NCBI GenBank assembly: GCA_037833965.1 | Contig: AP031356.1 | Span: forward strand, 15,336,501-15,400,500 | Direction: 5' to 3' | From: Marchantia polymorpha subsp. ruderalis | Taxonomy: Eukaryota > Streptophyta > Marchantiopsida > Marchantiales > Marchantiaceae | Length of the DNA: 64,000 nucleotides | Shown here: positions 2,496 through 37,932 of the stretch, piece after piece | Layout of the letters: each line of letters begins with the position of its first letter | Numbering within the stretch: the stretch's first letter is position 1 | Notes under the pieces: model-generated | The model's database searches: none | What the model saw: only the letters and a program-made list of their open reading frames with translations | Told to the model about the DNA's origin: nothing | Program-made: the position numbers and the translations under genes

Positions 2496-4961
2496 TTACC
2501 AGTCTTCCGACCGGCTGCGTAACCCCAGGCGTCGGAGCGCTGCAGTGACTTCCGACTGCAAGTGCGCCATAGTGTCGCACGCATCCGACAAGAAAGTTTC
2601 TAATTTTCTTGCCACTCGCCGCCGACTCCGACTGTCACCTTCCGTCAAGGCCGCCGCCCGAAGCTCGAACTCCCGGAGGGTAACCCTCTCTTGAGCTGCC
2701 ACCTCCCAATGGGTGTATCCGTTTAGACAACGAGTCACCCGTGCCGCCAACTCTCCTCGTGCCCTGCAGCTGCTCTCCACCTCTGCCAGCTGCATTTCTA
2801 AATCCGCACGTTGTGCCCTCAAATCCGAGCACTCGGATTGCAAGTTGCACAACAACTCCTCATCCTCCTTGCGGGCTCTTTGACTTTCTTCTAAGGCGCG
2901 CGTCTGGCGCGCAAGCTCGGCTGCTAGGACTTTGTTCTGTCTCCGCTCCTCCTGCAGTTCCGACTCGATCTTTGCCCGTATTAGTTCGGCCTCCGCCTGA
3001 CTCTTCGTCGCCGCATCCTCCTTCTGCTGCTGCAAGGCTTGGTACAGCTTCTGGGTGACCGCCAGGTGTTGTCGGAGGGCGGTGTTCCTTTCCACATATA
3101 CTTGGCAACTAGAGGCCCACTTTGCCACCTTGATCCTCGTCCTTCGCCTGATAGTCTCCACATAAGACTGCGGTTTTAAGGCACTTCCGTATTTGGATGT
3201 CTTGCGATCCAGATATCGCAGGAGTGGAACTATCTGTTCGCACAGCACCCCTGTTGGCGTTTTCTGCACCGAATCCTCTTCTTGCTCTTCCGAGCTCGTC
3301 TCATCCTCAGTCTCGAGGATCTCAGTCGCCACCGAATCCCTTGGCGACTCCCTGGAACTGTGGCGCGCAGCAGCTTCCGCTGCGACTGCTGCTCCACTGC
3401 CTGCTAAAATATCCAGGGCAGTGGGAGATCCCACTGCTTGAGCCCCTGTTCCGGCTCGATCTTCGGTTTGTGAAGGGGTCGACGCCGCAGTGACTTTTGT
3501 CACTCTTGCACCGCCCGCTTCTGCTGCCTGTCCTTCCGGCACAATCTGCGCGGAAGGTGTCCTTGCTGAGGGTGCGTCCGCCGAAGGCGTCCGCACACTG
3601 GTCGTTGGCCCCATCCGTCTCGCAGTCGGCGAATCCGGCTGACTCTCTGTTGTCCGACTCGCATTCGGCCGACCAGCAGTTGTCCGACTGGGAGTCGGAT
3701 ACACCCTGCGCGTCTTGACTCCACTTGGCCTGCTTGTTGGGGGCGTTCTTCCAGAAGTGCCTTCCGCCGAAGACGACCCTTTGAGGATTGTTGGCTCGTC
3801 AGCCAAACTCTCTTCTGCTTCCGGCCTGCTGTCCGGTTCAACGCGCCGTTCTGTTGGCCTTCCTTCCGCTTGTCGACCTTCAGTCATCCGACTCGCAGTC
3901 GGCCGGCTGTCAGTCCGTCCATCTCCTCCCGAAGGCCGTGGTGCCTTCTGTGCAGAGGTTTCTGCCGTCTTCCCTAGGACCTGAGCAATTATCTCTTCCT
4001 GTGTGAGATTCCGCCGGGTCGGAGTTCGCCTGGTCTCCTCAGTAACAGTTGGCATTCTGCGTGCCCTCTGTTTTGGTCGACTATGAGGCTCGGGGGTGGG
4101 CCGACCACGAGTCGGCGCAGCTGGTACTTCCGGCTGCCTGTCCTCAGGTCTCTCATCCCACTTCCGCTTGCGCGGAATGCGCTCACTTCGACGTTCTTCT
4201 GCTGCTCTGGCTGGAGCCGGAGCCGGAGGCGTACTGGCAGGTTCCTCGTCCGGATCCGTGTCTACTTCGGCCTCCCTCGAATATCTACCTGGATAAGACC
4301 GGCTCAGCTGCGGAAACCGAGTTTTCTCAGCATTCGTCAAACATCCCATCGCCCGGTAAAACACGATTAAGTAAGGCGATAGATGATTGAGCGTTCCTCC
4401 CCTCTCTTCTTGCGCATGTTGGCGCGTCACCTTCCACAGGAGCCGTGCCCAATGCACCGGAGCTCCTGACAACACTAGCTCCACGAACTCTACCTGCCAA
4501 CCATGCATGTAAGCGGTCTTGGTCGGCTGCAATATCTGCAGCAATGCTGTCGCGACATTTCTCCGCAATCGATCCTTGTAATCCCGAGTCCGGAAACCGT
4601 TCTTGGGATGTCTAGCCACCTTGAAGAGCTCATTGTAAGAGACTTCTTCCTCCTGGGACACTTTCACGCTGTCGGCCTCGAAGAGGAGATCCCCTTCCTC
4701 GCCGGCACACCTGCCCAACACCTGCGCCCAATTGCAAATTTCCCATCTCTCTGGGTGTGGGCGAAATCCGCGAGAAGGCTTGTGTCTCTCTTGCAGATAC
4801 TCGCGCACCATCTCCGGACACGTCCAATTCCACCCCCAGAGGAGAAAATCGAGCTTCAGCCTCGTCAGCACATCTTGAAATGCGCGTAGACCGATCTGCG
4901 GCACCCTGAGTGGAGACACTCGCAGTTGGGGAACCTTCGACATTGCGTTGCCTGCACACAC
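2496..4961 (-). CDS. LTR-internal ORF of LTR-A (unknown protein with coiled-coil C terminus)
   Basis: An 821-codon frame inside the U3 of the LTR, same strand as gag. Function is not recognised. Residues ~10-230 form a conserved domain shared with the LTR-B frame, with motifs LRAFQD, DFLLWGWN, WAQVLGRCAG, TRDYKDRLRR and GGTLNHLSPYLI-FYR. Residues ~240-520 are low complexity, rich in P, T, S, R and E with repeats of the GRPTxSRxTE kind. An acidic patch (ETEDETSSEEQEEDS) follows, then ~230 residues with heptad-like E/L/R/Q periodicity predicted to be coiled coil. The Met at residue 7 (MSKVPQLRVSP) aligns with an internal Met of LTR-B (MTRPSRLRMVP) and may be the real start. I see no signal peptide, membrane segment or enzymatic motif. 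This copy looks whole. Confidence 0.7.
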   Translation of the reverse strand: MCAGNAMSKVPQLRVSPLRVPQIGLRAFQDVLTRLKLDFLLWGWNWTCPEMVREYLQERHKPSRGFRPHPERWEICNWAQVLGRCAGEEGDLLFEADSVKVSQEEEVSYNELFKVARHPKNGFRTRDYKDRLRRNVATALLQILQPTKTAYMHGWQVEFVELVLSGAPVHWARLLWKVTRQHAQEERGGTLNHLSPYLIVFYRAMGCLTNAEKTRFPQLSRSYPGRYSREAEVDTDPDEEPASTPPAPAPARAAEERRSERIPRKRKWDERPEDRQPEVPAAPTRGRPTPEPHSRPKQRARRMPTVTEETRRTPTRRNLTQEEIIAQVLGKTAETSAQKAPRPSGGDGRTDSRPTASRMTEGRQAEGRPTERRVEPDSRPEAEESLADEPTILKGSSSAEGTSGRTPPTSRPSGVKTRRVYPTPSRTTAGRPNASRTTESQPDSPTARRMGPTTSVRTPSADAPSARTPSAQIVPEGQAAEAGGARVTKVTAASTPSQTEDRAGTGAQAVGSPTALDILAGSGAAVAAEAAARHSSRESPRDSVATEILETEDETSSEEQEEDSVQKTPTGVLCEQIVPLLRYLDRKTSKYGSALKPQSYVETIRRRTRIKVAKWASSCQVYVERNTALRQHLAVTQKLYQALQQQKEDAATKSQAEAELIRAKIESELQEERRQNKVLAAELARQTRALEESQRARKEDEELLCNLQSECSDLRAQRADLEMQLAEVESSCRARGELAARVTRCLNGYTHWEVAAQERVTLREFELRAAALTEGDSRSRRRVARKLETFLSDACDTMAHLQSEVTAALRRLGLRSRSEDW

Positions 4962-5850
4962 AAACGTTCTCCCTTTCGCTCACTCTCTCACAATCGCCAC
5001 TGCGCGTCGGCCACTCAAGCACTGACTGCTCACTCTCTCTGCGCTCGTTCAAGATCGCTACTCCCAATTCTTTCAAGGTCCGCCAAGATCCTTGTGCAAC
5101 TCGTCTCCGCACTCTCTACTCTCACTGCAGGTCGCTCCGCCCTTGCGCGTAATCTTGGAACTGGAAATTGCAAAGTCAAGAATGAGAGAATGAGACTGGA
5201 GCGCAGTCTTTTCTTCTCCGATTTCAAGAACGTCCAACGTTCTTACTGGTTGCAACGTACGCAGCCGGCTATACGGCTTAACGGTTCGCCCTTTGCATGC
5301 GCGAATTCACGTCCCCGCATTGCGCGCATTCGCATGCTTAAACGTTGAATTCTCCCGCCGCCGCCACCTTCCGGACTCGAGTCCGCTGCAGGGTATACGT
5401 CGGCCCTGTTGTCTTTTCCTAACCCGCCCTTCTCCGGAGGCGTGTCGCCGCTGGTGCGTTCATTATCCGTCGGCGCCTTGCTGGAGGCGCACATCCAGCC
5501 GGAGCGAATTACGCCGGCGCGCAGTCGTACCGCCTATTTTGTCCTTTATGCCTCGTCCGTTGCTGCCAGCGCATATCCGTCAGCGCAACTCATGCCAGCG
5601 CATCCGGCCGTCAGCGCCACGTCGGAGGCGTACATCCGACCGGCGCTTTCCTTCCATGAACAGCCGCCAAGGGCGCTTCCGACTCTGAGTTGGTTTCCTC
5701 CTGTGAGCGCGTGATTCCGCCGAAGGCGCATCGCCGAGGGCGTACGGGAATCCTTTCCGGCTGTGAACCCTAGCGCGAACGGCGCATGTCCGGCTACGAG
5801 TTTTCCGACGCTCATAACTTCTCCATTCCTGATCCATCTCCGGCGCTCTT

Positions 5851-5893
5851 GGACTCGTTAGAACGAGCGTCCCGAGCTCTTTCTAATGCAACT
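5851..5893 (-). promoter_or_regulatory. Shared inverted-repeat U3 module, LTR-A form
   Basis: The plus reading contains GGACTCGTTAGAACGAGCG, then GAGCTCTTTCTAATG. GTTAGAA pairs with TTCTAAT, the A-T version of GTTGGAA/TTCCAAC seen in the other families. The same module is at 21111-21150 and 21901-21940. Its function is unknown. Its place in U3 suggests a regulatory or structural role, which is inference. Confidence 0.45.
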
Positions 5894-6298
5894 TCAACCA
5901 ACTGGATCTACCGTGTATCCCGATTGTTATGAAGGTTTTCCCTTTCCGCGCTAGCGGCGCTTCGCCGAAGGCGCACTCATGGTCGGATGCCTTTAGAGGT
6001 CCGGGCCCTTCTCCTGACGTCTTTAGCAAAACCTCCTCCTAAGGTGTCTGCGCCGGAAGCGTAGCTTCCTTATACGCTAGAGGCGCGTGAGTAGAGACAC
6101 CTCAAAAAGGAGCTTTTGCCGAAGGCGCCGAAGACGTTGGCGTTGGTACATCCGACTACGTGATTCTTTGTGCCCTCGTGACGATCTCATCAATCCACTC
6201 TATTTAGCGTACCCTTCTCTAGCTACAAACACTGCTTTGGTACTAGTTTTCTAAAATTGTTTAAATTCTGCAAAAAAAACAAAAAGTGTGTTACCACA

Positions 6299-6830: not shown

Positions 6831-6839
6831 CAATTAACT

Positions 6840-9671
6840 GTGGGACTGGGAAGGAGTGAGACGAGTCACACCGAGGGCATTGTCGACCCTAGTGACTGTC
6901 ACGAAGTACAACTCAGTCCCGGCAAGTGCTTGAAGGTATCAAGCGCAGTGAGAGGAGACGAGCTAAGGAAAGTACAGGCGTTCCTTAGCCACTATGTCGA
7001 CGTCTTCGCCTGGAAGATCGAGGACATGAAGGGGATACCCGCACGGTATGGGGAACACCGTATCGATTTACTGGACGACTCAGTACCCATACGACAGCGC
7101 CAGTATCGCCTCAACCCAAAATACTCCTTGCTAGTGAAAGAGGAGATAGATAAGTACTTGAGCGCTGGTATTATTTACCCTGTGCTCAGCAGCGAGTGGG
7201 TGTCGCCGATTGTTATCGTACCCAAGAAGTTGACGGGTAAGATACGAGTGTGTCAGGATTTCCGGAAGTTGAATGCAGCAACACGCAAGGATCATCACCC
7301 GTTACCATTCACGGATGCCATTCTAGACCATGTCGCAGGACATGAATGTTATAGCTTCCTGGATGGGTTCTCAGGTTACAATCAGGTGTCTATCCGTGAA
7401 CAGGACAAGGATAAAACTACGTTCACAACCGACTGGGGAACTTACGCATACCACAAGATGCCCTTCGGTCTGTGCAACGCGCCTGCCACCTTTCAACGGA
7501 TGATGACCAATATCTTTCAGGAACAACTGAGGAAGTTCCTGGAAATATTCATAGATGACTTCTGTGTCTTCGGGAAGCGGTCTGAACACCTAAGTCACTT
7601 GAAGCAGACCTTCGATAAATGTAGAGAGAGCAGTTTATCACTGCATCCCGAGAAGTGCTTTTTCTTTATGACTAGTGGGATCTTGTTGGGTCATCGGGTC
7701 TCGGCAGAAGGCATTGCGGTGGACATCGAGAAGGTCAAGGTTATACTCGAGCTTGAACCACCCACGAATCTAAGAGAGCTGCGAGCATTCCTGGGTCATG
7801 TGGGCTACTACCGAAGATTCATACACATGTATGCAATACTGGCGGCGGACCTGACCAAGTTGTTGAAGAAGGACGAGCCTTATGCTTGGGGTGCGAACCA
7901 GCAGACAGCATTTGAAGCTCTGAAAGCGAAACTCACGACTGCTCCCGTACTAAGGAGTCCAGACTGGAATCGACCATTCCATGTTTACGTTGACACTTCG
8001 GCATTCGCCATCGGTGTAGTACTGAGTCAAAAGGATGACAACAAAAAGGACTACCCGATCTACTTCGCGAGCCGACAGCTGTCTCTAGCGGAGCGGAAGT
8101 ACACCACGACGGAGAGAGAAGCGTTGGGGATGGTGTACTCCTGTAAAAAGTTCCGTCACTACCTAATCTGTTACGAGTTTGTGTTCCATGTGGACCACTA
8201 CGCATTGCAACACCTAGTCAAGAAAGCCGACCTATCCGGTCGGATCGCCAGGTGGGTGTTGTTACTACAAGAGTTCACCTACACAGTCCAGACCAGGAAA
8301 GGGGTGCACCATGAAAATGCGGATTACTTGTCCCGATTATGGACCCAGCCGACAGAGGAGGAATTGGTGGACGATTTTCCAGATGAAGAGTTATTTCAGT
8401 TGTCTGCAGGACATGAGTCCCGCTATGCCGACCTGTATCGATATCTGCTAACCCTCCAGTGCCCCGAGGGCATGGATTTGGAACAGCGAACTGTCTTTAT
8501 TCATAAGGCAGGCCCGTACCAACTCCAGCAGGGGGTTTTGTTCAAGAAGATGGCGGATGAGCGCTTATGCAGATGCCTGGAGGAATCAGAAGTACCAAGA
8601 ATAGTGAGTGCGATGCACATAGAGGAGGCGGGCGGACACTATGCCACCAGGAACAAGGTCACAAAGATCCTAAATGCGGGATATTGGTGGCCGACCATGT
8701 TTAAGGATGTTCTCGATTACATCCGCAAGTGCGATAGTTGCCAGAGGACGGGGAGACCGACGCCTACAACACGCTGGCCCCTGACTCCCATCATGCCTCT
8801 GGCACCTTTCGAAAAGTGGGGTATTGACTTTGTAGGGCCGATACAACCAGTGACTAGAAGTACACGAAGGCGCTACATTCTGGTAGCAACGGACTACGCC
8901 ACCAAAATGGTAGAGGCCAGAGCCACCAGAAAGGATGATGCTGCCACAGTGGCAGCATTCTTGTTTGAGTCGATCATCACACGCTACGGATGTCCCTTAG
9001 AGCTAGTCAGCGACCGGGGCACGCATTTTCTGAATCAGATCATCGAAGATCTGACACGGTATTTCCACATCAAGCACCGGAAGACTACTCCATACAATCC
9101 CAAGGCAAATGGACTGACGGAGAAGTCCAATGGTCTGCTGTGTAAAATACTACTCAAGGTCACGGTGAATCACGCTCACGACTGGGATACGAAGCTAGCA
9201 GCCGCTCTATGGGCGTACCGCACAGCTGAGAAGATCACGACCAAACAGACACCATACTTTCTGGTGTATGGGCAACACCCGATCCTCCCGATCGAATTTG
9301 AAGTACCCACCCAACGAACGTTGGATTTGCAGAGGATGGGCGCAGAGGAGAGTCAGCTCTACAGGTTACAGGAAGTCACGCTGCTGGATGAGCGGAGAAG
9401 AGACGCCGAAGATCGCACCAGGAAAATCCAGCTCCGCCGAAAAGAGAGATACGATAGAAAGATCAAACCGGTACTCCTGCAGGCAGGTGATTTGGCATTG
9501 CTCTACGACAGCAGGCATGCCAGATTCCCAGGCAAACTGCACCTAAGGTGGATGGGACCTTACAGGGTTGTCGAAGTCTTCCCGAATGGATCCATCCAAC
9601 TTGCGGACCTGGCCGGCGATTTGTTAGGCACCCGAGTCAACGGGTGGCGGTTGAAGAAATACCACATGTGA
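6840..9671 (+). CDS. pol of E2: reverse transcriptase, RNase H, integrase
   Basis: A 943-codon open region. The reverse transcriptase carries RVCQDFRKLNAAT, MPFGLCNAPATFQR and the catalytic FIDDF (about 7547-7561). RNase H starts near VYVDTSAFAIG (about 7985) and holds TTEREALGMV. The integrase has an HHCC zinc region (H-x-HYATRNK to CDSCQRTG, about 8616-8745) and the D-D-E triad in GIDFVGP (about 8821), LVSDRGTHF (about 9005) and GLTEKSNG (about 9112). The C terminus ends GTRVNGWRLKKYHM with no chromodomain. These enzymes copy the RNA into DNA and insert it. The polypurine tract and 3' LTR follow within 40 bp. Confidence 0.9.
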   Translation: MGLGRSETSHTEGIVDPSDCHEVQLSPGKCLKVSSAVRGDELRKVQAFLSHYVDVFAWKIEDMKGIPARYGEHRIDLLDDSVPIRQRQYRLNPKYSLLVKEEIDKYLSAGIIYPVLSSEWVSPIVIVPKKLTGKIRVCQDFRKLNAATRKDHHPLPFTDAILDHVAGHECYSFLDGFSGYNQVSIREQDKDKTTFTTDWGTYAYHKMPFGLCNAPATFQRMMTNIFQEQLRKFLEIFIDDFCVFGKRSEHLSHLKQTFDKCRESSLSLHPEKCFFFMTSGILLGHRVSAEGIAVDIEKVKVILELEPPTNLRELRAFLGHVGYYRRFIHMYAILAADLTKLLKKDEPYAWGANQQTAFEALKAKLTTAPVLRSPDWNRPFHVYVDTSAFAIGVVLSQKDDNKKDYPIYFASRQLSLAERKYTTTEREALGMVYSCKKFRHYLICYEFVFHVDHYALQHLVKKADLSGRIARWVLLLQEFTYTVQTRKGVHHENADYLSRLWTQPTEEELVDDFPDEELFQLSAGHESRYADLYRYLLTLQCPEGMDLEQRTVFIHKAGPYQLQQGVLFKKMADERLCRCLEESEVPRIVSAMHIEEAGGHYATRNKVTKILNAGYWWPTMFKDVLDYIRKCDSCQRTGRPTPTTRWPLTPIMPLAPFEKWGIDFVGPIQPVTRSTRRRYILVATDYATKMVEARATRKDDAATVAAFLFESIITRYGCPLELVSDRGTHFLNQIIEDLTRYFHIKHRKTTPYNPKANGLTEKSNGLLCKILLKVTVNHAHDWDTKLAAALWAYRTAEKITTKQTPYFLVYGQHPILPIEFEVPTQRTLDLQRMGAEESQLYRLQEVTLLDERRRDAEDRTRKIQLRRKERYDRKIKPVLLQAGDLALLYDSRHARFPGKLHLRWMGPYRVVEVFPNGSIQLADLAGDLLGTRVNGWRLKKYHM

Positions 9672-9695: not shown

Positions 9696-9708
9696 GAGGA
9701 GGGGGGCA
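9696..9708 (+). other. Polypurine tract of E2
   Basis: GAGGAGGGGGGCA directly before the LTR start TGTGGTACC at 9709. It is the expected plus-strand primer site, and it shows that the 5.4-kb unit that follows is the 3' LTR. Confidence 0.85.
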
Positions 9709-10019
9709 TGTGGTACCCCACTTTTGGCAATTTTGAGGAAATTAAAACATTTTTGGAAAACTGTACCCTGGCAGCATTGTAAATAGCCTTCGGTACATCA
9801 AAACAGAGTGAATCCGGAAGATCGCGGGGATTCTCGAGGGATCTTGTAGAATCTGGGATTTCGAGTGCCGCAGCAAGCACAGGCACCACCCCCCCTGCGA
9901 GCTCCGCAGTTAGGATCTCTACGGCGCAAGGCGCAAAACCCGCCTTCGGAGGTTGCGTCCGCGGCTGTAGGGAAACCCCCGTAATTAGGTCAACCCTCGG
10001 GCGCTTTGACCAAGTTAGG

Positions 10020-10063
10020 GTCCCGTTGGAAAGAGCTCGACGCGCTGATTCTAACGAGCCCAA
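10020..10063 (+). promoter_or_regulatory. Shared inverted-repeat U3 module, LTR-B form
   Basis: Contains CCCGTTGGAAAGAGCTCGA and, after a short spacer, GATTCTAACGAGCCCAAGAA. The arms are inverted copies of a CTCGTTRGAA element. Equivalent sites lie at 28281-28326, 44928-44975, 51206-51255, 53698-53748, 55201-55245 and 56104-56147. Similarity to the LTRs of the Tat-like element extends to roughly 110 bp around it. Confidence 0.5.
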
Positions 10064-10215
10064 GAACACTTGGAACGGACGAGGACTTAGGGAGTTACCG
10101 CTACTGGCAGAAAGGAAGGCGGTCGCCTACGGCGGAAGGATTTCGCCACCGGCGCGAATTCCGCCTACGCAGAAGGGGGATTCAAGTTTTGTCCTATGCG
10201 CGGACGAAGGCATTC

Positions 10216-10291
10216 GCCTGTGCACAGGCGAAGTAGGGTTAGGGAAGGCGCGAAGTCCGCCTACGCACAGGCGTTCGCCTGTGCACAGGCA
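10216..10291. repeat. Cluster of GCCT-N6-AGGC palindromes in U3
   Basis: Two perfect GCCTGTGCACAGGC palindromes (10216-10229 and 10277-10290), with a variant between them. Others occur at 10578-10591 (near-perfect, GCCTGCGCACAGGC), 42575-42588, 53519-53532 and 55356-55369 (GCCTACGCGTAGGC), 55412-55425 (near-perfect, GCCTACTCGTAGGC), 55771-55784 and many more. The arms GCCT/AGGC are constant while the core varies and often stays self-complementary. Confidence 0.7.
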
Positions 10292-10954
10292 CTTCGGCGT
10301 CGGCGGAAAATCCGCCTTGGGCCCTAGAAATGCGCCTTGTGAGGTAGAAAGTGTACGGCGCCTTCCGCGCCAGCGCAGCGCAGCGTACGTCGGAAGAGCC
10401 ACCAGAGTAATCCAATAGGTACGGACCGTGCGGACGGCACGGGTGGAGGCGCTCTTGGACGGACGGAGTTGCGGCGGCGGAAGCGCCGACGGAGAGACAA
10501 GGAACGGACAGACTGGACGGAGACGGCTGACCACGGTCAACGCCTTCCGCGCCAGCGCAGCGCCGCGGACGGAATTCGCCTGCGCACAGGCGAACGCCTG
10601 TGCACAGGAGGATGTTCAAGTTCCGCGCCGGCGGAGAATCCGCCGAGGCTCCTGCCTGCGCACAGGCAGGAGTTGAATTTTTGTCCGACATGCGGACACA
10701 CGCGTCAAGGCAGAAGGAGATTGGCCGAGGGGCGGTACGAACAAGTGTACCGCGCAAGGCGGAAAACTCGCCTTCGGCGCTACGCCCCCATGTCCGGAGG
10801 GTGACACGCTCGCGGAGTTCAAATCCGCCAATTCGAGCGTGAGAGTTTAATCGACGACGGCGGAGCGTGAAGCCGCGCGTGAGAGCGAAGACCGTTCCAG
10901 CGTACAGCCGGCGCGGCCATCAAGTGAGACGTTCTTCACGACCAAGAGACGACC

Positions 10955-13900
10955 ATGACCTTCGACCGGGCGGCGGAGAGCGTCCCATTCTTGAATTCGC
11001 GATTCCAATCTCTTGTGCGCGCTGCGCGCATCCATCTGCTGGCTGCGGACCATTCCCGACGTCGTCACACAGGAGATTTCTTGTTGATTGAGGGAGAAGT
11101 GAGTGCGCGTGATTTGGAATTGAGAGCGATTAGAGTTTGCCGAGAGAGAAAGAAACGCGGACAGTGCGGAAGTAGAATGAGCGGGCGAGCGAACCCCAGG
11201 AACGCAATGACGAGACCGAGCAGATTGCGGATGGTGCCACTTCGCCTGCCGCAGAACGGGCTGCGCGCTTTCGAAGAGCGCTTAATAGCAAGAAAGCTCG
11301 ATTTCTTGCTATGGGGATGGAATTACATCTGCGCGAATATGGTGCGCGAGTGGCTAGAGCCACAGGGACCACCCTCGCGCGGATTGCGTCCGCATGTTGA
11401 CCGGTGGACAGTCCAAGATTGGGCGCAGGCGTTGGGAAGATGTGCTGGCATGCCAGGGCATCTCCTTTTCGACAGTGAGAGCATCAAGGTGACCAAGCAA
11501 GAAGAGGCGCAATTTGTGGAGCTGTTCAAGACCGGGAGGTCTACCAAGAATGGGTACAGGACCCGTGATTACAAAGATCGATTTCGCCGGACTCTGTCCG
11601 CGGCGCTGATGCAATTACTGCAACCGCACCGCGCCTGCTACATCACATTGTGGCAGGTCTCTTTTGTGGAGTGCGTCATCGAGGGAACTCCAATTCACTG
11701 GGCGAGCATCCTGCACAGGGTGATGCGACAGCACGCGTTTGAGGAGAAGGGGGGAACTCTAAACCATCTTTCTCCTTTCCTCATCAATTTTTATCGACAG
11801 CGGAATTGTTTGACAGCGGCGGAGCTTGAACATTTTCCGCCATTGTCCATCGACCATCCCGGGAAGTATGTGCGGGAGAACGAGGTCGACACTGATGCGG
11901 AGGAGTCACCGACTTCTACCCCATCAAGACGGAGGGAGGAAGGGAGACACACTCCTGCAGCGCGAGTGCCGCGGAAGCGGCGATGGAGGGAAGAGTCCGA
12001 AGAGGAGCAGCATCAAGAACCCTCTGCTCCCATTCGACCGCGGCCGCTGTGCGAGCCATACAGCCGGCCGAAGCAGAAGGCACGCAGACTGGTGTTACCA
12101 GCTGACAGTGCAGACACGGCGACGATTGCGACGGAGATAGGAAGTGCGTCGCCAGAGAGGCGAGAGGAAGCGCGGACGACCGCACGAGAGACGGGCCACG
12201 CTGCAACCTCGTCGGGAGAGAGGCCGCCTACGGGCCAAGGGCCTCCGGAGTTACCACGTGCGATGCGGACAGATGTTCCGTTTGCGCACAGGCGAACCTC
12301 CGCGGACGGACGAGTCTCCGCGGACCGGCGAACACAAGTGGACGTGGATCTACGCTTACGCGTGGGAAGGAGCAGTCCGCCTGTGCACAGGCGCTCACCT
12401 GTGCACAGGTCGCCTATGCACAGGTCACCTGTGCACAGAACACCTCCGCACGTGCCGCCTGTGCACAGGCAAGAATCACCCCCGTTCCAACGTAGGAAGG
12501 GGAAGGAGCCGGCGGAAGAACCGCCTACGAGACACCGGCCCTCGGGGCCAGACCCTCCGGCGCACCACGCGCCGCAATTCGCGCCTTCGGCGCCAGGGCC
12601 TTCGAGCCGAGGGGACACGAGCAGAGAGCGTGCGGAGGCCGCACCATCGGCGGGAAGTCCGCCGATAGATGCGCCTTCGGCGGTAGGGCCTATAGGCCAA
12701 GGAACATCGGGCGTGCGGCCCCCGGCCATGTCGCCTTCGGCGATAGATGTCCGCGGCGCTACGCCTGCGACGGACAAGGCGCCGGCAAACGCGCCTGCGC
12801 ACGGGCCGGGCACGGCCCCCACGGACCGATCGAGGGAGCAGCAGACGATGGAGCGGAGTGACTGTCCGCGGGACGACATCTCGATGCGCGATGCGCAATC
12901 CAACCCCGCGCAGCCACCCTCCGCTCAATCGCCTTCGGCGACGGACGACGGCGACAGAGAGAATGCGGTAGGCAAGCAACCAGCGAGCGACGGGGATGCC
13001 GCTCGGGTACACTCGCCTTCCGCCTTAGACATTTTGGCGACGAGCAGCGAGGCTGCAGCCGTGCCTTCGCAGGCAGCACACGTCGAGGACGTGCAGCCCC
13101 ACTCGGGGCAGTCGCCAACGCAATCAATGGCGACTGAAATTCTCCACTCGGATGATGACGACGGGGGCTCCACGGAAGAAATGTCAGGAGCAGAAGACAC
13201 CGAGGAGGAGGAGGAGGAAATTGTTGGAGCGCCGGCGGCGGCGCTCTCTGAGCAGGTGATTCCGTTGCTGCGGTACTTGGATCGCAAGGTCGATAAATAC
13301 GCCGACCCACTCCAGCCGGGATCTTACATCGAGTTAGTGCGCAGGAGGACTCGCACTAAAGTCCACACCAGCAAGCTATTAGCTAGAGTGGACCAGGAGT
13401 TGAGAGACTTGAGGGAGAAGCATGAGTGCTTGTGGGGACAGTACAAGCTTAATCAGAAGTTCTACAAGCACTCCGAGAAGATGAAGGATGAGAAACTGGG
13501 TGAGCTCACCAAGGAGCAGGTGAAGGTCAAGGAAGCACTCGATTCTGAGCAGGCCCAGAATCGGATTTTGTCAGAGGAGCTCGTGCGGCAGACGCGGTTG
13601 TTGGAACAATGTCAGCTCGCACGGCAGGCGGATGAAGAATTAATCCGCAGTTTGCAGTCAGAGTGTGGCGAATTGAGAGCGCAACGTGCTGAAGCCGAAT
13701 CGCAATTAGTGACGATTGAAGAGGATCGCAGGAAGGAGGCGGATCGCACGAAGGTGGAGACGGCGAGGCGAGTCGCCCACTGTCTCAAGGGCTACGCCCA
13801 CTGGGAAGTGAAGGCGCAGGAGAAACTCACACTGCGTGAGTTTGAATTGCGCGCAGCCGGGTTGTTGTCAGGCGACAGTAGGAGTCGGCGGAAGGTAGCG

Positions 13901-14107
13901 AAGAAGCTCGAGGCCTTCCTGTCGAAGGCACAGGATACCATGTCCGCCCTCGAAGGGGAGGTGTCCGCGGCGTTGCAGCGGTTGGGACTGCGCAGTCGAG
14001 CGGAAGAGTGGCAGGGTAGAGAGTTAGTGCGCGGCAGTCGGCCGCGCAGGAGACGTAGTACAGGTTCCGCGGAGTGTAGTGTAGCGTGGTTCCGTGCAGG
14101 CGTGTAG
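10955..14107 (+). CDS. LTR-internal ORF of LTR-B (unknown protein, 1,050 aa)
   Basis: Long frame within U3 of the 3' LTR, same strand as pol. Function not recognised. Residues 1-84 are an extension (MTFDRAAES...) that I do not see in LTR-A; a second possible start is MTRPSRLRMVP at ~84. Residues ~85-315 are the domain shared with LTR-A: LRAFEER, DFLLWGWN, WAQALGRCAG, TRDYKDRFRR, GGTLNHLSPFLINFYR. Residues ~320-730 are low complexity (P, S, A, R) and include a PVHRRSP-type repeat at ~473-505 encoded by the GCCTGTGCACAGGC palindromes. An acidic patch (HSDDDDGGSTEE to EEEEEE, ~730-755) precedes a ~260-residue predicted coiled coil ending LGLRSRAEEW. The frame looks whole. Expression could come from the 3' end of genomic RNA or an unseen U3 promoter. 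Confidence 0.72.
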   Translation: MTFDRAAESVPFLNSRFQSLVRAARIHLLAADHSRRRHTGDFLLIEGEVSARDLELRAIRVCRERKKRGQCGSRMSGRANPRNAMTRPSRLRMVPLRLPQNGLRAFEERLIARKLDFLLWGWNYICANMVREWLEPQGPPSRGLRPHVDRWTVQDWAQALGRCAGMPGHLLFDSESIKVTKQEEAQFVELFKTGRSTKNGYRTRDYKDRFRRTLSAALMQLLQPHRACYITLWQVSFVECVIEGTPIHWASILHRVMRQHAFEEKGGTLNHLSPFLINFYRQRNCLTAAELEHFPPLSIDHPGKYVRENEVDTDAEESPTSTPSRRREEGRHTPAARVPRKRRWREESEEEQHQEPSAPIRPRPLCEPYSRPKQKARRLVLPADSADTATIATEIGSASPERREEARTTARETGHAATSSGERPPTGQGPPELPRAMRTDVPFAHRRTSADGRVSADRRTQVDVDLRLRVGRSSPPVHRRSPVHRSPMHRSPVHRTPPHVPPVHRQESPPFQRRKGKEPAEEPPTRHRPSGPDPPAHHAPQFAPSAPGPSSRGDTSRERAEAAPSAGSPPIDAPSAVGPIGQGTSGVRPPAMSPSAIDVRGATPATDKAPANAPAHGPGTAPTDRSREQQTMERSDCPRDDISMRDAQSNPAQPPSAQSPSATDDGDRENAVGKQPASDGDAARVHSPSALDILATSSEAAAVPSQAAHVEDVQPHSGQSPTQSMATEILHSDDDDGGSTEEMSGAEDTEEEEEEIVGAPAAALSEQVIPLLRYLDRKVDKYADPLQPGSYIELVRRRTRTKVHTSKLLARVDQELRDLREKHECLWGQYKLNQKFYKHSEKMKDEKLGELTKEQVKVKEALDSEQAQNRILSEELVRQTRLLEQCQLARQADEELIRSLQSECGELRAQRAEAESQLVTIEEDRRKEADRTKVETARRVAHCLKGYAHWEVKAQEKLTLREFELRAAGLLSGDSRSRRKVAKKLEAFLSKAQDTMSALEGEVSAALQRLGLRSRAEEWQGRELVRGSRPRRRRSTGSAECSVAWFRAGV

Positions 14108-14143
14108 CGTAGTGCAGTGTAGTGTTAGGTAGGACTTAGAAGG

Positions 14144-14150
14144 TATAAAA
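14144..14150 (+). promoter_or_regulatory. TATA box of LTR-B (E2 3' LTR)
   Basis: TATAAAA, 37 bp after the stop of the LTR frame. It is conserved in position in every LTR-B copy (for example 40892-40898 and 26392-26398 on the minus strand, and near 60213). It is the likely promoter of the full-length RNA and places R near 14175. Confidence 0.65.
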
Positions 14151-14155
14151 TAGTT

Positions 14156-14172
14156 CCAGGCGTTTTGCCTGG
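14156..14172 (+). other. Hairpin between TATA box and R
   Basis: CCAGGC-GTTTT-GCCTGG. The same form is at 60225-60241 and 40870-40886. Other copies carry CAAGGC...GCCTTG (26370-26386, 28863-28879, 47184-47200, and LTR-A at 2326-2342 and 17585-17601). The second pair changes from C-G to A-T on both arms together, so pairing is kept. Confidence 0.55.
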
Positions 14173-15118
14173 GGTTCTTTCCCATCAGAAGTGCAGATCA
14201 GGAACCCATTTCCTTTGCGTGTTTGTGTCCTTGAGTTCTGTCACCACGCACGAGGAGTTACAACTTAGCGTTCCGCATTTTGTAGCTGAAGGCCTTCGGC
14301 CGAATGTTCAGAGCTAGTACATTGGTTAGAGACTTGAGTAGTTCGGATCTGCACCTGCGGGTGACTGCCGATGCTCAGAGCCAGTGACTAGTTAGATACT
14401 TGAACAGTTTCGCCCCTACACCTTCGAGTGTTTCTTTCTGATTGTACTCCTTGGGATTTTTCCCCTGAATGCCAAAGTGAAGTTTTGCTACTTCGTGTAA
14501 GCCTTGGTTGTAAATTCAGGTTACGCTGCAGCAGGTGCCTTGAGGGTAACCCCTGTAGTATTTCTGGAAATGACAAGTGCCTGAGAATTCAAACTCTTCA
14601 ATAGACTGTTGTTGTGTTACTGGAATGTTTCACAGTGAGTCCTTCAGTGCGGACCTGTGTTCTCTGCGCGTTTTGTGAGTTGAGAGTGTTGTTCACCGCG
14701 TAGGAGTGACTTCGATCCGAAGTAGGCAGTCCAAACCGGGTTTCCTACACTAGCAGCAAGCTGGTGGAAGTGTTGTAAAAGCCGGAGTTGGAAGTCACTG
14801 CCCGCAGCTTTGCCGAGTGTGCTCGTGAGAGACTTTCCCCCTGAAATCTTGAAGTAGAGGTCCTAACGGATCTCTGGGTTGTGTTTCTGTAGTTTCAGGT
14901 GTGTGTGTGTGTGTGTGTGTTACGCTGCACTGTGCGACCTCCGAGTGCGCTCCGAGTGGACACTTGCAGTATTTCTGGGAGTGACAGTTGCCTGAGAATT
15001 CAAACTCCTCAATAGTCTGTTGAAACGTGACACTTTGTACCCTGTGTGTTCCTCTGTCCCTGTGGGTTCGACCTTTCTACCACTATATTGCAGTTTTAGC
15101 CTTTAGTGGGTTATTACA

Positions 15119-16604
15119 GAGGTTGGTTGTGATTGCCTGGAGGTGCCATGCGTCTTGGTGGGAGTGTACCCGCCATTTCCCTCGGAACAAAGCGCGGTAT
15201 ATGCACCGGTGGGTTCGGAGTTGTAGCTGGAGCTGTCTGTACCGAGTAGGCGGTGTCCTCAACCTGCTCAGCATAATACATAGGTGGCTCAGCATAATAC
15301 ATAGGTGGCTCAGCATAATACCTGGGGTTCTCCCACTGTGGTGCCCATTCGACCGCATTCACTGGGTAAGATGGCCGCGCGGACATGCACTCCGTGTTGG
15401 CATGTCCCACCTGTCCGCACGTAGTACACCAGAGATTCGCTCGTTGTCTCGCAGGTGATTTACGTCGGTCTTGGCCTCCCACTACATGAACTTTCAGGTC
15501 CGCAAAATTCTTCACCAGGTTGTCTACCTTGGCTGCGATGTCCCCTTGAGTCTTCACTGGGATTCCCTTACCTCGATCCTTCTTCTTGATCGCACTGCGT
15601 TTCTTCTTCCGTCTTTCTTCTTCTGAAGATGACGAGTCCTCTTCCTCTTCCGAGGAAGAACTTGATTCGGAGGAGCTTGATTCTTCTGTCGAGGAAGGTG
15701 AGTTCCTTCTCTTCCGACGTCCGCCTTGCGACTTCTTCTTCGTCGACCGTCGGTCGCGTCTTCGAGTGTCAAGGGTTGACGTCTCAAAGGTCTCCGCGGA
15801 AGCTATCACATCTTGGATTGTGTCAGTCTTGCCTCTCCTACAGAAGGTCTCCATTTCTCTTGAGAGCCCTGTCACATACCAATCCACTGCCTGTTGTACC
15901 GAATACGGTTCTCCCGGGCCTGTCTTCGGAATTCGATCTAGGAGGTCTTGGAATCTCTCAGTGTAGTCTCGAAGATTCTCCTTCCGCTCGCGTCGAAGAT
16001 TTCGAAGTCGGGTCAGAACTCGACTGTCATATCCGAGTTCGCGGAACCGCCTCAGAAACTTTTCCTTGAGCTGAGCCCAGGTCCGGATGCCAGTGGGGTC
16101 GGTGCTCTCATGGTTATACCAGCTACGCGCTCGTCTGCGTAGCAGGCTAGGGAAGATTCGTAGTCTGTCTTCATCACTGGTCTCACGATTGGCGATGGAG
16201 ACAGACTCGAAGAGCTTTATGTATGAATCTGCATCATCGTCGTCGCCCGTTCCCGTGTATCTTGGATACGAATGTTTGGTGGTAGGTTGGGAAAACACCT
16301 GGCGGAGATTGGCTTGATGTTCTGCCATCGGTGATCCTGTCGACGGACTGATCCTAGGTTGGCCAAACTCAGGAAGAGTTCCTGTCGGAGGGATGTCCAA
16401 CAGAACTGTTAGCTCAATGCTCTCAGTAGGTGAACTGGAACGCCTTTGTCTTCCAGTAGTCGGTGATGGCGATCTTTCTGCAGAGTCCTCACCGGGGGTC
16501 TTCTTTTTAGTTCGCCGTTTTGTTTCCACGGCTTTTTCTGAATCTCGACGGAGTTTCCGTGTGGCTCTCGCACTCAGGTTTCCCACACTATCGCTCGTCG
16601 ACAT
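15119..16604 (-). CDS. gag of element E1-B (cut by insertion of E2)
   Basis: Gag polyprotein of about 495 residues as far as visible, starting MSTSDSVGNLS. It has a basic N-terminal region; a Retrotrans_gag domain around residues 110-270 (YPRYTGTGDDDDADSYIKLFE, RARSWYNHE, LKEKFLRRFRELG); an acidic SSSSEEEE tract at ~310-340; a CCHC zinc knuckle (WCTTCGQVGHANTEC, ~395-410); and tandem YYAEPPM units at ~440-460. The zinc knuckle binds element RNA in this family. It differs from the copy at 1-1348 in only a few bases and in the number of YYAEPPM units. The frame is ended by the LTR of E2. Confidence 0.87.
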
Positions 16605-16647: not shown

Positions 16648-16665
16648 TCCCCGGCAGCGGCGCCA
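16648..16665 (-). other. Primer-binding site of element E1-B
   Basis: The same 18-nt tRNA-Asp-like site as at 1392-1409, again 22 nt from the LTR end. Confidence 0.75.
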
Positions 16666-16687: not shown

Positions 16688-19600
16688 TGTAATAACCCAC
16701 CAAAGGCTAAAACTTGCAGAATGGTGGTAAAAAGATCGAACCCACAGGGACAGAGGCAACACACAGAGTAAAAGTGTCACGTTTAACAGACTTTTGTAGA
16801 GTTTGAATTCTAGGCGACTGTCACTCCCAGAAATACTGCAGTGCTCGACTCGGAGGCTCGACTCGGAGGAGGATCTCAACTCGGAGGATGCTCGGAGGAT
16901 GCACGGTACAGCGTGGTCACTCAACACACACACACACACCTGAAACTGGCAAAAAGCACAACTCGGAGGTCGGTCAGGACCTCCGCTTCGGATTTCAGGA
17001 GGAAAGTGTCTCGCAAGTTCACTCAGAGGTTCTGCAGGAAGTGCCTCCCACTCCGGCTTTTACTGCCCTTCCGCCAGGAACTAGCGGGGGTACCCGGACT
17101 GGACTTCTCACTTCGGAACGAAGCCTCTACGTACGCCGCCGTGGACGTCACCCTCGACTATCACACAAAACGCAGGGAGTGCAGATCCGACTGAGAACTT
17201 ACTGAAAACACGATCCAGTAACACACACACAACCTGAATTACAAACCAAGGTTTACACGAAGTAATGAAACTTCACATTGGCATTCAGGGGAAACTTCCC
17301 GTAGGAGTACAATCAGGATATGTCACTCGAAGGAGTAAGGGGGAACTGTTCAAGTCTCTAACTCGCAGCCGGCTCTGAGCATCAGAAATCACCCGCAGGT
17401 GCAGATCCGCACTACTCAAGTCTCTAACCGGGTACTAGCTCTGAACATTCAGCCGAAGGCCTTCAACTACAACATACGGTAACTTCGCTATGCTGCAGCT
17501 TCTCTACGTGGTGCCAGGTCCAAAATGCACAAACACGTCAAGAAAGTGAGTTCCTGATCTGCACTTCCGAAACTGGAAGAGTCCCAAGGCAAAACGCCTT
17601 GATCTACTTTATACTCTCAAAAGATCCTAACTAGCACTACGCTATCCTATCTACCACTCGCAGCATCTGCGCGAAACCAAACTACTCTACTGCACTCAGC
17701 AGATCCGGTGCTACGCCTCCTGCGCGCCGGACTGCTCCGCTTACTGTCTCTACCTTGCCAGTCTTCCGACCGGCTGCGTAACCCCAGGCGTCGGAGCGCT
17801 GCAGTGACTTCCGACTGCAAGTGCGCCATAGTGTCGCGCGCACCCGACAAGAAAGTTTCTAATTTTCTCGCCACTCGCCGCCGACTCCGACTGTCACCTT
17901 CCGTCAAGGCCGCCGCCCGAAGCTCGAACTCCCGGAGTGTGACCCTCTCTTGAGCTGCCACCTCCCAATGGGTGTATCCGTTTAGACAACGAGTCACCCG
18001 TGCCGCCAACTCTCCTCGTGCCCTGCAGCTGCTCTCCACCTCTGCCAGCTGCATTTCTAATTCCGCACGTTGTGCCCTCAAATCCGAGCACTCGGTTTGC
18101 AAGTTGCGCAACAACTCCTCATCCTCCTTGCGGCTCTTTGACTTTCTTCTAAGGCGCGCGTCTGGCGCGCAAGCTCGGCTGCTAGGACTTTGTTCTGTCT
18201 CCGCTCCTCCTGCAAGTCCGACTCGATCTTTGCCCGTATTAGCTCGGCCTCCGCCTGACTCTTCGTCGCCGCATCCTCCTTCTGCTGCTGCAAGGCTTGG
18301 TATAGCTTCTGGGTGACCGCCAGGTGTTGTCGGAGGGCGGTGTTCCTATCCACATATACTCCGCACCTAGAGGCCCACCTTGCCACCTTGCTCCTCGTCC
18401 TTCGCCTGATTGTCTCCACATAAGACTGCGGTTTTAAGGCACTTGCGTATTTGGATGTCTTGCGATCTAGATATCGCAGGAGTGGAACTATCTGTTCGCA
18501 CAGCACCCCTGTTGGTGTTTTCTGCACCGAATCCTCTTCTTGCTCTTCCGAGCTCGTCTCATCCTCAGTCTCGAGGATCTCAGTCGCCACCGAATCCCTT
18601 GGCGACTCCCTGGAACTGTGGCGCGCAGCAGCTTCCGCTGCGACTGCTGCTCCACTGCCTGCCAAAATATCCAGGGCAGTGGGAGATCCCACTGCTTGAG
18701 CCCCTGTTCCGGCTTGATCTTCGGTTTGTGAAGGGGTCGACGCCGCAGTGACTTTTGTCACTCTTGATCCGCCCGCTTCTGCTGCCTGTCCTTCCGGCGC
18801 AATCTGCGCGGAAGGGGTCCTTGCTGAAGGTGCGTCCGCCGAAGGCGTCCGCACACTCGTCGTTGGCCCCATCCGTCTCGCAGTCGGCGAATCCGGCTGA
18901 CTCTCTGTTGTCCGACTCGCAGTCGGCCGACCAGCAGTTGTCCGACTGGGAGTCGGATACACCCTGCGCGTCTTGACTCCACTTGGCCTGCTTGCTGGTG
19001 GCGTTCTTCCAGAAGTGCCTTCCGCCGAAGACGACCCTCTGAGGATTGTTGGCTCGTCAGCCAAACTCTCTTCTGCTTCCGGCCTGCTGTCCGGTTCAAC
19101 GCACCGTTCAGTTGGCCTTCCTTCCGCTTGTCGACCTTCAGTCATCCGACTCGCAGTCGGCCGGTCGTCAGTCCGTCCATCTCCTCCCGAAGGCCGTGGT
19201 GCCTTCTGTGCAGAGGTTTCTGCCGTCTTCCCTAGGATCTGAGCGATTATCTCTTCCTGTGTGAGATTCCGCCGGGTCGGAGTTCGCCTGGTCTCCTCAG
19301 TAACAGTTGGCATTTTGCGTGCCCTCTGTTTTGGTCGACTGTGAGGCTCGGGGGTGGGCCGACCACGAGTCGGCGCAGCTGGTACTTCCGGCTGCCTGTC
19401 CTCAGGTCTCTCATCCCACTTCCGCTTTCGCGGAATGCGCTCACTTCGACGTTCTTCTGCTGCTCTTGCTGGAGCCGGAGCCGGAGGCGTACTGGCAGGT
19501 TCCTCGTCCGGATCCGTGTCTACTTCGGCCTCCCTCGAATATCTACCTGGATAAGTCCGGGTCAGCTGCGGAAACCGAGTTTTCTCAGCATTCGTCAAAC

Positions 19601-21559
19601 ATCCCATCGCCCGGTAAAACACGATTAAGTAAGGCGATAGATGATTGAGCGTTCCTCCCCTCTCTTCTTGCGCATGTTGGCGCGTCACCTTCCACAGGAG
19701 CCGTGCCCAATGCACCGGAGCTCCTGACAACACTAGCTCCACGAACTCTACCTGCCAACCATGCATGTAAGCGGTCTTGGTCGGCTGCAATATCTGCAGC
19801 AATGCCGTCGCGACATTTCTCCGCAATCGATCCTTGTAATCCCGTGTCCGGAAACCGTTCTTGGGATGTCTAGCCACCTTGAAGAGCTCATTGTAAGAGA
19901 CTTCTTCCTCCTGGGACACTTTCACGCTGTCGGCCTCGAAGAGGAGATCCCCTTCCTCGCCGGCACACCTGCCCAACACCTGCGCCCAATTGCAAATGTC
20001 CCATCTCTCTGGGTGTGGGCGAAATCCGCGAGAAGGCTTGTGTCTCTCTTGCAGATACTCGCGCACCATCTCCGGACATGTCCAATTCCACCCCCAGAGG
20101 AGAAAATTGAGCTTCAGCCTCAACAGCACATCTTGAAATGCGCGTAGACCGATCTGCGGCACCCTGAGTGGAGACACTCGCAGCTGGGGAACCTTCGACA
20201 TTGCGTTGCCTGCACACACACAAACGTTCTCCCTTTCGCTCGCTCTCTCACAATCGCCACTGCGCGTCGGCCTCTCAAGCACTGACTGCTCACTCTCTCT
20301 GCGCTCGTTCAAGATCGCTACTCCCAATTCTTTCAAGGTCCGCCAAGATCCTTGCGCAACTCGTCTCCGCACTCTCTACTCTCACTGCAGGTCGCTCCGC
20401 CCTTGCGCGTAATCTTGGAACTGGAAATTGCAAAGTCAAGAATGAGAGAATGAGACTGGAGCGCAGTCTTTTCTTCTCCGATTTCAAGAACGTCCAACGT
20501 TCTTACTGGTTGCAACGTACACAGCCGGCTATACGGCTTAACGGTTCGCCCTTTGCATGCGCGAATTCACGTCTCCGCATTGCGCGCATTCGCATGCTTA
20601 AACGTTGAATTCTCCCGCCGCCGCCACCTTCCGGACTCGAGTCCGCTGCAGGGTATACGTCGGCCCTGTTGTCTTTTCCTAACCCGCCCTTCTCCGGAGG
20701 CGTGTCGCCGCTGGTGCGTTCATTATCCGTCGGCGCCTTGCTGGAGGCGCACATCCAGTCGGATCGAATTACGCCGGCGCGCAGTCGTACCGCTTATTTT
20801 GTCCTTTATGCCTCGTCCGTTGCTGCCGGCGCATATCCGCCAGCGCAACTCATGCCAGCGCATCCGGCCGTCAGCGCCACGTCGGAGGCGTACATCCGAC
20901 CGGCGCTTTCCTTCCATGAACAGCCACCAAAGGCGCTTCCGACTCTGAGTGGGTTTCCTCCTATGAGCGCGTGATTCCACCGAGGGCGCATCGCCGAGGG
21001 CGTACGGGAATCCTTTCCGGCTGTGAACCCTAGCGCGAACGGCGCATGTCCGGCTACGAGTTTTCCGACGCTCATAACTTCTCCATTCCTGATCCATCTC
21101 TGACGCTCTTGGACTCGTTAGAACGAGCATCCCGAGCTCTTTCTAATGCAACTTCAACCAACTGGATCTACCGTGTATCTCGATTGTTATGAAGGTTTTC
21201 CCTTTCCGCGCTAGCGGCGCTTCGCCGAAGGCGCACTCATGGTCGGATGCCTTTTAGAGGTCCGGGCCCTTCTCCTGACGTCTTTAGCAAAACCTCCTCC
21301 TGAGGTGTCTGCGCCGGAAGCGTAGCTTCCTTATACGCTAGAGGCGCGTGAGTAGAGACACCTCAAAAAGGAGCTTTTGCCGAAGGCGCCGAAGACGTTG
21401 GCGTTGGTACATCCGACTACGTGATTCTTTGTGCCCTTGTGACGATCTCATCAATCCACTCTATTTAGCGTACCCTTCTCTAGCTACAAACACTGCTTTG
21501 GTACTAGTTTTGTAAAATTGTTTAAATTCTGCAAAAAAAACAAAAAGTGTGTTACCACA
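16688..21559 (-). mobile_element. LTR-A copy 2 (5' LTR of E1-B), 4,872 bp
   Basis: Full-length LTR-A with the same ends as copy 1 and very high similarity throughout. It holds the LTR frame (20372-17647), TATA (17613-17607), hairpin (17601-17585), the inverted-repeat module (21111-21150) and a CA microsatellite near 16925-16940. Confidence 0.9.
17647..20372 (-). pseudogene. LTR-internal ORF of LTR-A copy 2, broken
   Basis: Counterpart of the frame at 2496-4961, with the same N-terminal domain (DVLLRLKLNFLLWGWN, WAQVLGRCAG), low-complexity middle, acidic patch and coiled coil. It looks broken at about one place. The open stretch also extends upstream of the MSKVPQ start with a basic leader (MRRRVAQGSWRTLKEL), so the N-terminal limit in LTR-A is unsettled. 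Confidence 0.7.
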
Positions 21560-29777: not shown

Positions 29778-29782
29778 ACCTG

Positions 29783-37930: not shown

Positions 37931-37932
37931 TA

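What the first reader, a model, noticed from the sequence alone, without database searches (positions are those of the whole stretch)
9709..15118. Retrotransposon LTRs that each carry a ~1,000-codon reading frame
The 5.3-5.4-kb LTR-B units and 4.87-kb LTR-A units hold a long frame on the element's coding strand. Sequence evidence that they are LTRs: a polypurine tract immediately before 9709, a tRNA-Asp-type primer site just past the LTR-A ends (1432, 16688), TG...CA ends, and three solo copies with perfect 5-bp duplications. Plant Ty3/gypsy elements are known to carry extra genes between pol and the 3' LTR; MMTV carries sag in its LTR. A long protein gene duplicated in both LTRs of a plant element is, to my knowledge, unusual and is the best candidate here for an undescribed system.
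Basis: partly seen in the sequence, partly recalled or inferred. Interest (0 to 1): 0.88.

Follow-up and report, generated by a model that had tools for sequence, protein, structure and literature searches.

The report
Liverwort retrotransposon carries gene inside LTR
In a Marchantia-type liverwort genome, two related families of jumping elements carry a long protein gene inside their repeated ends, so a full element holds two copies of it, and the gene shows signs of being kept working as the element spreads.

Summary
Nine B-family LTR pairs were read: eight have a 5.4-kb LTR with the frame at both ends; in the ninth the 5' LTR is truncated but keeps the frame. LTR-A gives fifteen 10.65-10.66-kb spacings. 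All 13 insertions whose two outer ends I compared have perfect 5-bp duplications. The primer site matches host tRNA-Asp(GTC) genes. The host is almost certainly Marchantia polymorpha. The frame is a gene: differences between lineages concentrate at third codon positions (B1/B2 6, 10, 50; dN/dS 0.13), while differences between the two LTRs of one element do not (5, 8, 6). A conserved TATA box follows the frame, so the gene probably lies in U3, as sag does in MMTV (PMC3026287). Most likely it is the element's third gene, made from the 3' end of element RNA; expression was not tested and function is a guess. Named relatives are all M. polymorpha hypothetical proteins. My searches found no described plant gene inside an LTR.

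The parts
9709..15118 (+). LTR-B, 5,410 bp, 3' LTR of a 5'-truncated element
   Evidence: TG...CA ends, PPT upstream, same ends as LTRs of complete elements
10955..14107 (+). LTR gene, 1,050 aa: conserved N-terminal domain (about 95-320), basic motifs, P/S/T/A-rich middle, acidic stretch, C-terminal helical-looking region (about 760-1030)
9696..9708 (+). polypurine tract GAGGAGGGGGGCA, 24 nt after the pol stop
   Evidence: same tract before the 3' LTR of 8 of 9 B intervals, one base different in the ninth, and before 3' LTR-A in 3 of 3 read
14143..14153 (+). TATA box GTATAAAATAG, likely promoter of element RNA; places the gene in U3
   Evidence: GTATAAARTAG in LTR-A and LTR-B subfamilies
14156..14172 (+). 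short hairpin CCAGGC-GTTTT-GCCTGG next to the TATA box; CAAGGC...GCCTTG in LTR-A, a compensatory change
   Evidence: two B copies (L005/L027 and L012) depart from it
6831..9671 (+). pol: reverse transcriptase, RNase H, integrase (no chromodomain, no second RNase H found)
   Evidence: same in L012
6828..6830 (+). in-frame TAG in context TAG CAA TTA between gag-pro and pol
   Evidence: same in the window copy and in 9 of 9 fetched B loci in which the junction was found
55793..61185 (+). solo LTR-B with full frame 57039-60176 (1,045 aa), TSD CACCT
39926..45287 (-). solo LTR-B with full frame 40935-44042 (1,035 aa), TSD AGGAG
46239..51560 (-). solo LTR-B subfamily copy with broken frame (845 aa open, 47249-49786), TSD ACGCT
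1432..6298 (-). LTR-A, 5' LTR of a complete element whose 3' LTR lies left of the window (G000:C7 about 15327275-15332141); frame 2496-4961; TSD GTACA
16688..21559 (-). second LTR-A, frame 18078-20372, after which another frame continues
15114..16604 (-). gag frame of the LTR-A element
   Evidence: PF03732; 61% identical over 481 aa to gag of an LTR-B element
16649..16665 (-). primer binding site, exact complement of host tRNA-Asp(GTC) 3' end

Best explanation
Two related families (LTR-A, LTR-B) of Ty3/gypsy retrotransposons in a Marchantia genome carry a third gene inside the LTR, probably in U3. Shown: the layout LTR[gene] - tRNA-Asp PBS - gag-protease - TAG CAA TTA - RT-RNase H-integrase - PPT - LTR[gene] in complete recent B copies (for A: gene, LTR ends, PBS, PPT), and purifying selection on the gene between element lineages. 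Inferred: element RNA starts at the TATA box downstream of the 5' LTR's gene, so it holds the gene once, at its 3' end after pol; the protein is made from a spliced or otherwise subgenomic RNA of the 3' LTR, and reverse transcription copies that U3 into both LTRs. Because second-strand synthesis starts at a PPT directly after pol, a gene that other plant elements keep between pol and the 3' LTR sits inside the repeat. The protein tested has no likely membrane span, keeps basic motifs (PRKRRW, RPKQKARR) and ends in a helical-looking region; my best guess is a multimerising, probably nuclear accessory factor acting on the element's own RNA, chromatin or integration (function about 0.35; layout and coding status above 0.95).
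For: Both LTRs, PBS, PPT and TSDs in complete elements. Host tRNA-Asp genes match the PBS. Selection: differences at codon positions 1,2,3: B1/B2 6,10,50; B1/B3 45,43,119; B1/B4 101,83,160; dN/dS 0.13, 0.26, 0.39; residues 151-300 of B1/B3 0.02. Ten sampled copies against B1: 95,83,384; LTR pairs of single elements, the neutral control: 5,8,6. LTR-A protein 48% identical with the same N- and C-terminal blocks. TATA box after the frame in both families. A M. polymorpha gene model, P0059, joins integrase directly to the gene's N-terminal domain, as splicing from pol would (a model, not a transcript). Basic motifs in the majority line of the 35-protein alignment; hydropathy maximum 1.14 over 19 residues in P0001.
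Against: No transcript, start site, splice site or peptide was seen; the U3 placement rests on a TATA match, 36 nt after the stop in B1 but about 145 nt after the frame in A1. 7 of 12 copies sampled without regard to the frame are broken. No informative Pfam domain and a low-confidence fold (pLDDT 58) without PDB match at E<=0.001, so no function is shown. Constraint is uneven: dN/dS reaches 0.55 (B1/B3, residues 301-450) and 0.58 (B1/B4, 601-750), and the middle drifts in length. dN/dS of B1/A1 cannot be given for the whole gene because synonymous sites are saturated. The ten comparisons share B1's own branch, so their pooled p-value overstates independence; the control has only 19 differences. 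A1/A2 (20,22,35; dN/dS 0.49; p 0.018) is the weakest pair; A2 and B4 are partly decayed.
Confidence: 0.8

Rival explanations
1. The true LTRs are short and the frame lies between pol and a small LTR.
For: Other plant Ty3/gypsy elements keep extra frames there (PMC7264820, part 1 of 3 read).
Against: A repeat of 5,394-5,414 bp including the frame stands at both ends of eight B intervals, and the five simple ones have TSDs outside it; the A elements agree at their read ends.
Confidence: 0.01
2. The long frame is an accident of G+C-rich sequence and not a gene.
For: LTR is 58% G+C; other long frames, also antisense, occur.
Against: Markov null maximum 464 codons against 1,059 open; third-position excess between lineages but not within LTR pairs; relatives at protein level.
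Confidence: 0.02
3. It is the env-like third frame of Athila/Tat-type plant elements, moved into the LTR when the PPT came to lie directly behind pol.
Against: PF20167 gave no candidate in the genome search (where no control rang either) and is not among the families listed for 35 members scanned at E<=10 (25 of 32 shown); no likely transmembrane stretch in the member tested.
Confidence: 0.35
4. The gene has its own promoter in the 1.25-kb LTR leader, so that every LTR, solo ones included, is a free-standing gene.
For: Solo LTRs with open frames exist.
Against: No TATA[AT]A in the leader of the eight LTR copies examined, which does not exclude a TATA-less promoter; leader poorly conserved between A and B (48% aligned identity).
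Confidence: 0.2
5. The frame is a captured or domesticated host gene kept for the host.
For: Many M. polymorpha gene models contain it.
Against: Many near-identical copies, those read lying in LTRs; within-element differences show no constraint; no relative outside Marchantia among named hits.
Confidence: 0.04

Closest known systems
Mouse mammary tumor virus sag in the 3' LTR (PMC3026287, passages read)
   Same: Accessory protein encoded in an unusually long LTR, after the structural genes, so present in both LTRs of the provirus.
   Different: Sequence relation not tested; here about 1,000 codons in a 5.4-kb LTR of a plant Ty3/gypsy element in which no env was found; MMTV LTR about 1.3 kb; spliced sag RNAs are known there, none was sought here.
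Additional frames in plant LTR retrotransposons (Athila, Bagy2, Grande, RIRE2, Retand), PMC7264820 (part 1 of 3 and passages read)
   Same: Extra gene downstream of pol in most copies, function unknown.
   Different: Described there as lying in the internal region, mostly between pol and the 3' LTR; here inside the LTR. The terms 'in the LTR' and 'within the LTR' do not occur in that text.
[not shown]
   Same: Host genus; RT-RNase H-integrase pol without a second RNase H.

Membership tests
Ty3/gypsy LTR retrotransposon | RT-RNase H before integrase in one pol, gag with CCHC knuckles, protease | tested here: met
   PF03732, PF00098, PF13650, PF00078, PF17917/17919, PF17921, PF00665 in that order; PF13650 is just under its cut-off (23.9 against 24.3 bits)
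Ty3/gypsy LTR retrotransposon | Two LTRs with TG...CA, PBS, PPT and 5-bp TSD | tested here: met
Tat lineage without extra RNase H (Tat Z) | No chromodomain and no second RNase H | tested here: met
   none found by Pfam in two B pol frames
Tat lineage without extra RNase H (Tat Z) | RT/INT tree position | not tested
   no reference sequences at hand
MMTV-sag-like U3 gene (layout only) | Frame inside the LTR, upstream of the start of element RNA | tested here: inconclusive
   inside the LTR: met; RNA start only inferred from a conserved TATA box
MMTV-sag-like U3 gene (layout only) | Made from a spliced RNA with acceptor before the frame | not testable with these tools
   gene model P0059 is a hint only
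Env-like third frame of plant elements | Frame in sense, downstream of pol | tested here: met
Env-like third frame of plant elements | Frame between pol and the 3' LTR, outside the repeat | tested here: not met
   frame is inside the repeat
Env-like third frame of plant elements | Transmembrane domain | tested here: not met
   best 19-residue hydropathy 1.14; a simple scan of one member, P0001
Pfam PF20167 plant transposon domain | HMM match | tested here: inconclusive
   no candidate in the genome search, where no control rang, nor among the families listed for 35 members (25 of 32 shown)

The most novel reading that the evidence does not exclude
An independent, plant counterpart of the retroviral U3 accessory gene: a liverwort retrotransposon lineage moved its third gene into the LTR and uses the protein as a trans-acting regulator of its own LTRs, perhaps binding the palindrome CCTGTGCACAGG that recurs in both the non-coding leader and the coding part of LTR-B (25 in the window, 0.02 expected).
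Probability: 0.12. Interest if true: 0.85.

Novelty: new variant of a known kind. Interest (0 to 1): 0.64.

Why it matters
An LTR is normally treated as regulatory DNA. A selected gene of about 1,000 codons inside it means that a full insertion carries two copies, that a solo LTR still carries the gene, and that the likely promoter of element RNA lies behind it. It gives a plant case of a layout best known (to me) from MMTV, in a model plant, and a question that can be tested there: what a retrotransposon gains from a protein encoded in its own repeat. It also warns that Marchantia gene annotations contain many 'hypothetical proteins' of this family (27 of 29 and 44 of 50 hits bear such M. polymorpha names); whether each lies in an LTR could not be checked.

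Tried and rejected
Short-LTR reading: rejected by complete elements. Chance frame: rejected. Pfam identity of the protein: none at E<=0.001 for the 4 LTR-gene frames given. At E<=10, listings for 9 window frames (best 0.0027, an adenovirus E3 family, for 28928-29878) and for 35 family members (best Extensin_1, 0.00019, in 2 of 35; CENP-K 0.0018 in 2 of 35) concern few members each; I take them for chance matches of coiled-coil or proline-rich stretches. Structure: AlphaFold2 on residues 91-335 with 20 sequences gave pLDDT 58, and Foldseek against PDB gave 16 matches at E<=10, none at E<=0.001; not used as evidence. PF20167 search of the genome: no candidate, no control rang. tRNA scan of six element and host loci found nothing. 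Literature: searches were answered; in the passages that I saw of the plant papers opened (of PMC7264820 also part 1 of 3) no gene inside an LTR is described. PMC1560396 matched 'gene within the LTR' only through a phrase about the maize Fie2 gene lying within an LTR retrotransposon.

Dropped rows: two of the twelve sampled copies (L035, L037) had no full-length frame alignment and were left out of the codon-position counts; array and rearranged intervals are not counted as TSD tests. Copies fetched were chosen from the best-scoring protein hits, so their intactness is biased; one search was made to avoid that (12 of the 40 scored 5' ends, about every third in rank). The hits include three members of its own query alignment, and those include the query.
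Full report
Host. The genome holding the window has 241,466,482 bases in 9 contigs and 45 matches to the chlorophyll a/b-binding family. All 5 relatives found by the first protein search are Marchantia polymorpha proteins; one found later, P0021, is 79% identical over 42% of the protein. The MpTak2_v7.1 assembly of M. polymorpha has 9 sequences and 241,484,302 bp (PMC13078153, passages). The host is therefore almost certainly M. polymorpha; the 18-kb difference in size is not explained.

The frame and its LTR. Window 10955-14107 (+) is open for 1,050 codons from its ATG inside the 5,410-bp LTR 9709-15118. In 500 first-order Markov simulations of this LTR the longest open frame in six frames had a median of 210 and a maximum of 464 codons.

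Are these the true LTRs? A protein search of the whole genome scored 44 of 13,973 candidates; all 44 match residues 1-1050 at 98-100% identity, 41 of 44 without a stop. Seventeen of them form nine intervals of 11.19-11.20 kb. All nine were fetched and read in pieces. In eight, LTRs of 5,394-5,414 bp stand at both ends; in the ninth the 5' LTR is truncated at its start but keeps the frame. LTR-LTR identity is 99.58-99.96%. In three intervals the internal region goes on past an outer LTR, so at least one outer flank is missing. The five simple elements have TSDs GGTCG, TTCCG, GTGTG, AGACC and GCCGG. For LTR-A, 55 of 13,276 candidates were scored, all over the whole query at 98-100%, 51 of 55 without a stop; 29 of them form fifteen intervals of 10.65-10.66 kb. 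Outer ends of four of the fifteen were read; all four have TSDs (GTACA, CTTGA, AAATG, TGCAC), and the inner ends read show the same PBS (2 of 2) and PPT (3 of 3). Window copy 1432-6298 is the 5' LTR of one of these. Over both families 13 of 13 insertions tested (nine complete elements, four solo LTRs) have perfect 5-bp duplications.

Anatomy. After the 5' LTR and a 22-nt spacer comes TGGCGCCGCTGCCGGGG. The pattern search found 29 places in the genome ending CCCCGGCAGCGGCG, and 2 of 2 inspected are tRNA-Asp(GTC) genes; with CCA added this is the exact complement. The internal 5.8 kb encodes gag with zinc knuckles and a protease, then a TAG, then RT-RNase H-integrase in the same frame. The stop is TAG CAA TTA in the window copy and in 9 of 9 fetched B loci in which the junction was found; a different element next to one of them has TAG CAA CTA. 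CAR YYA after UAG is the context described as essential for TMV readthrough (PMC2754532, passages). Readthrough itself was not tested. PPT GAGGAGGGGGGCA lies 24 nt after the pol stop and directly before the 3' LTR. Pol is broken in some copies: the frame ends early in L010 and is split in L024. Element C in the same window, with a pol 47% identical, has 1.94-kb LTRs and no LTR frame over 189 codons.

U3. In the eight LTR copies examined a conserved TATAAA follows the frame, 36 nt after the stop in B1 and about 145 nt after the frame in A1; one copy (B3) has a further TATAAA inside the frame, none has one in the leader. A small hairpin follows, with a compensatory change between families and departures in two B copies. 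If element RNA starts there, the gene lies wholly in U3. This start site is inferred, not seen.

Selection. Pairs of window copies: B1/B2 dN/dS 0.13, B1/B3 0.26, B1/B4 0.39, A1/A2 0.49; for B1/A1 synonymous sites are saturated and dN is 0.505. Constraint is uneven, from 0.02 (B1/B3, residues 151-300) to 0.58 (B1/B4, residues 601-750). Counts of differences at codon positions 1, 2, 3: B1/B2 6, 10, 50; B1/B3 45, 43, 119; B1/B4 101, 83, 160; A1/A2 20, 22, 35; ten sampled copies against B1 95, 83, 384. The control is the two LTRs of single elements, identical at insertion: 5, 8, 6 over nine intervals, a small number. So the constraint acts while the element replicates and is not seen after insertion, as expected for an element gene. 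In 12 copies chosen by their non-coding 5' end (not by the frame), 5 are open for at least 1,044 codons and 7 are not.

Protein. LTR-A and LTR-B proteins share an N-terminal domain, basic motifs and a C-terminal region; the middle varies. No informative Pfam match was found, no membrane span is likely in the member tested, and the fold model is too weak to use. Protein searches found 5 of 5, 27 of 29 and 44 of 50 hits named as M. polymorpha hypothetical proteins, the rest (0, 2 and 6) without a name. P0059 is a gene model that runs from integrase straight into the N-terminal domain of the LTR gene; this fits splicing from pol but is only a model.

How it works, and what is known. The simplest account is that element RNA runs R-U5-gag-pro-(leaky stop)-pol-PPT-U3[gene]-R, that the gene is the third cistron, and that the position of the PPT before the gene makes it part of the LTR. 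MMTV does this with sag (PMC3026287, passages). The review of extra frames in plant elements places them in the internal region (PMC7264820, part 1 of 3 and passages). Searches listed no plant paper that I could recognise as describing an LTR gene; the library lacks most subscription journals, so this is not proof of novelty. The function is a guess: a multimerising, probably nuclear accessory factor.

Noticed in passing
window 6828-6836; L010 153-161 and 9526-9534: gag-pro and pol are separated by an in-frame TAG CAA TTA (TMV-type leaky stop context), found in the window copy and 9 of 9 fetched B loci with the junction; a neighbouring different element has TAG CAA CTA.
   Followed up: partly
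window, 25 places, e.g. 10217-10228, 12380-12391: Palindrome CCTGTGCACAGG occurs 25 times against 0.02 expected, in the LTR leader and inside the LTR gene, where copies encode PVHR repeats.
   Followed up: partly
window 39926-45287, 46239-51560, 55793-61185; L011/L012, L024/L025, L048/L051, L052/L055: 7 of 13 insertions tested lie inside an older LTR-A or LTR-B copy; the sample is not random, but self-nesting looks frequent.
   Followed up: partly
window 29783-39869 (-): Complete different Ty3/gypsy element: LTRs 1,937 bp at 99.95% identity, TSD CAGGT, 2,039-aa gag-pol in one frame without the TAG.
   Followed up: partly
G000:C7 14.77-15.52 Mb; G000:C9 4.98-5.99 Mb: 7 of 44 best LTR-B hits crowd in mid C7 and 11 of 55 best LTR-A hits in one megabase of C9; cause not examined.
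   Followed up: no
G000:C3 22.62-22.65 Mb; C4 3.41-3.44 Mb: Arrays with three evenly spaced gene copies, at C3 read as LTR-internal-LTR-internal-LTR sharing LTRs, at C4 seen from spacing only.
   Followed up: partly
window 14156-14172 and equivalents: Hairpin beside the TATA box with a compensatory change between LTR-A and LTR-B; two B copies depart from it.
   Followed up: partly
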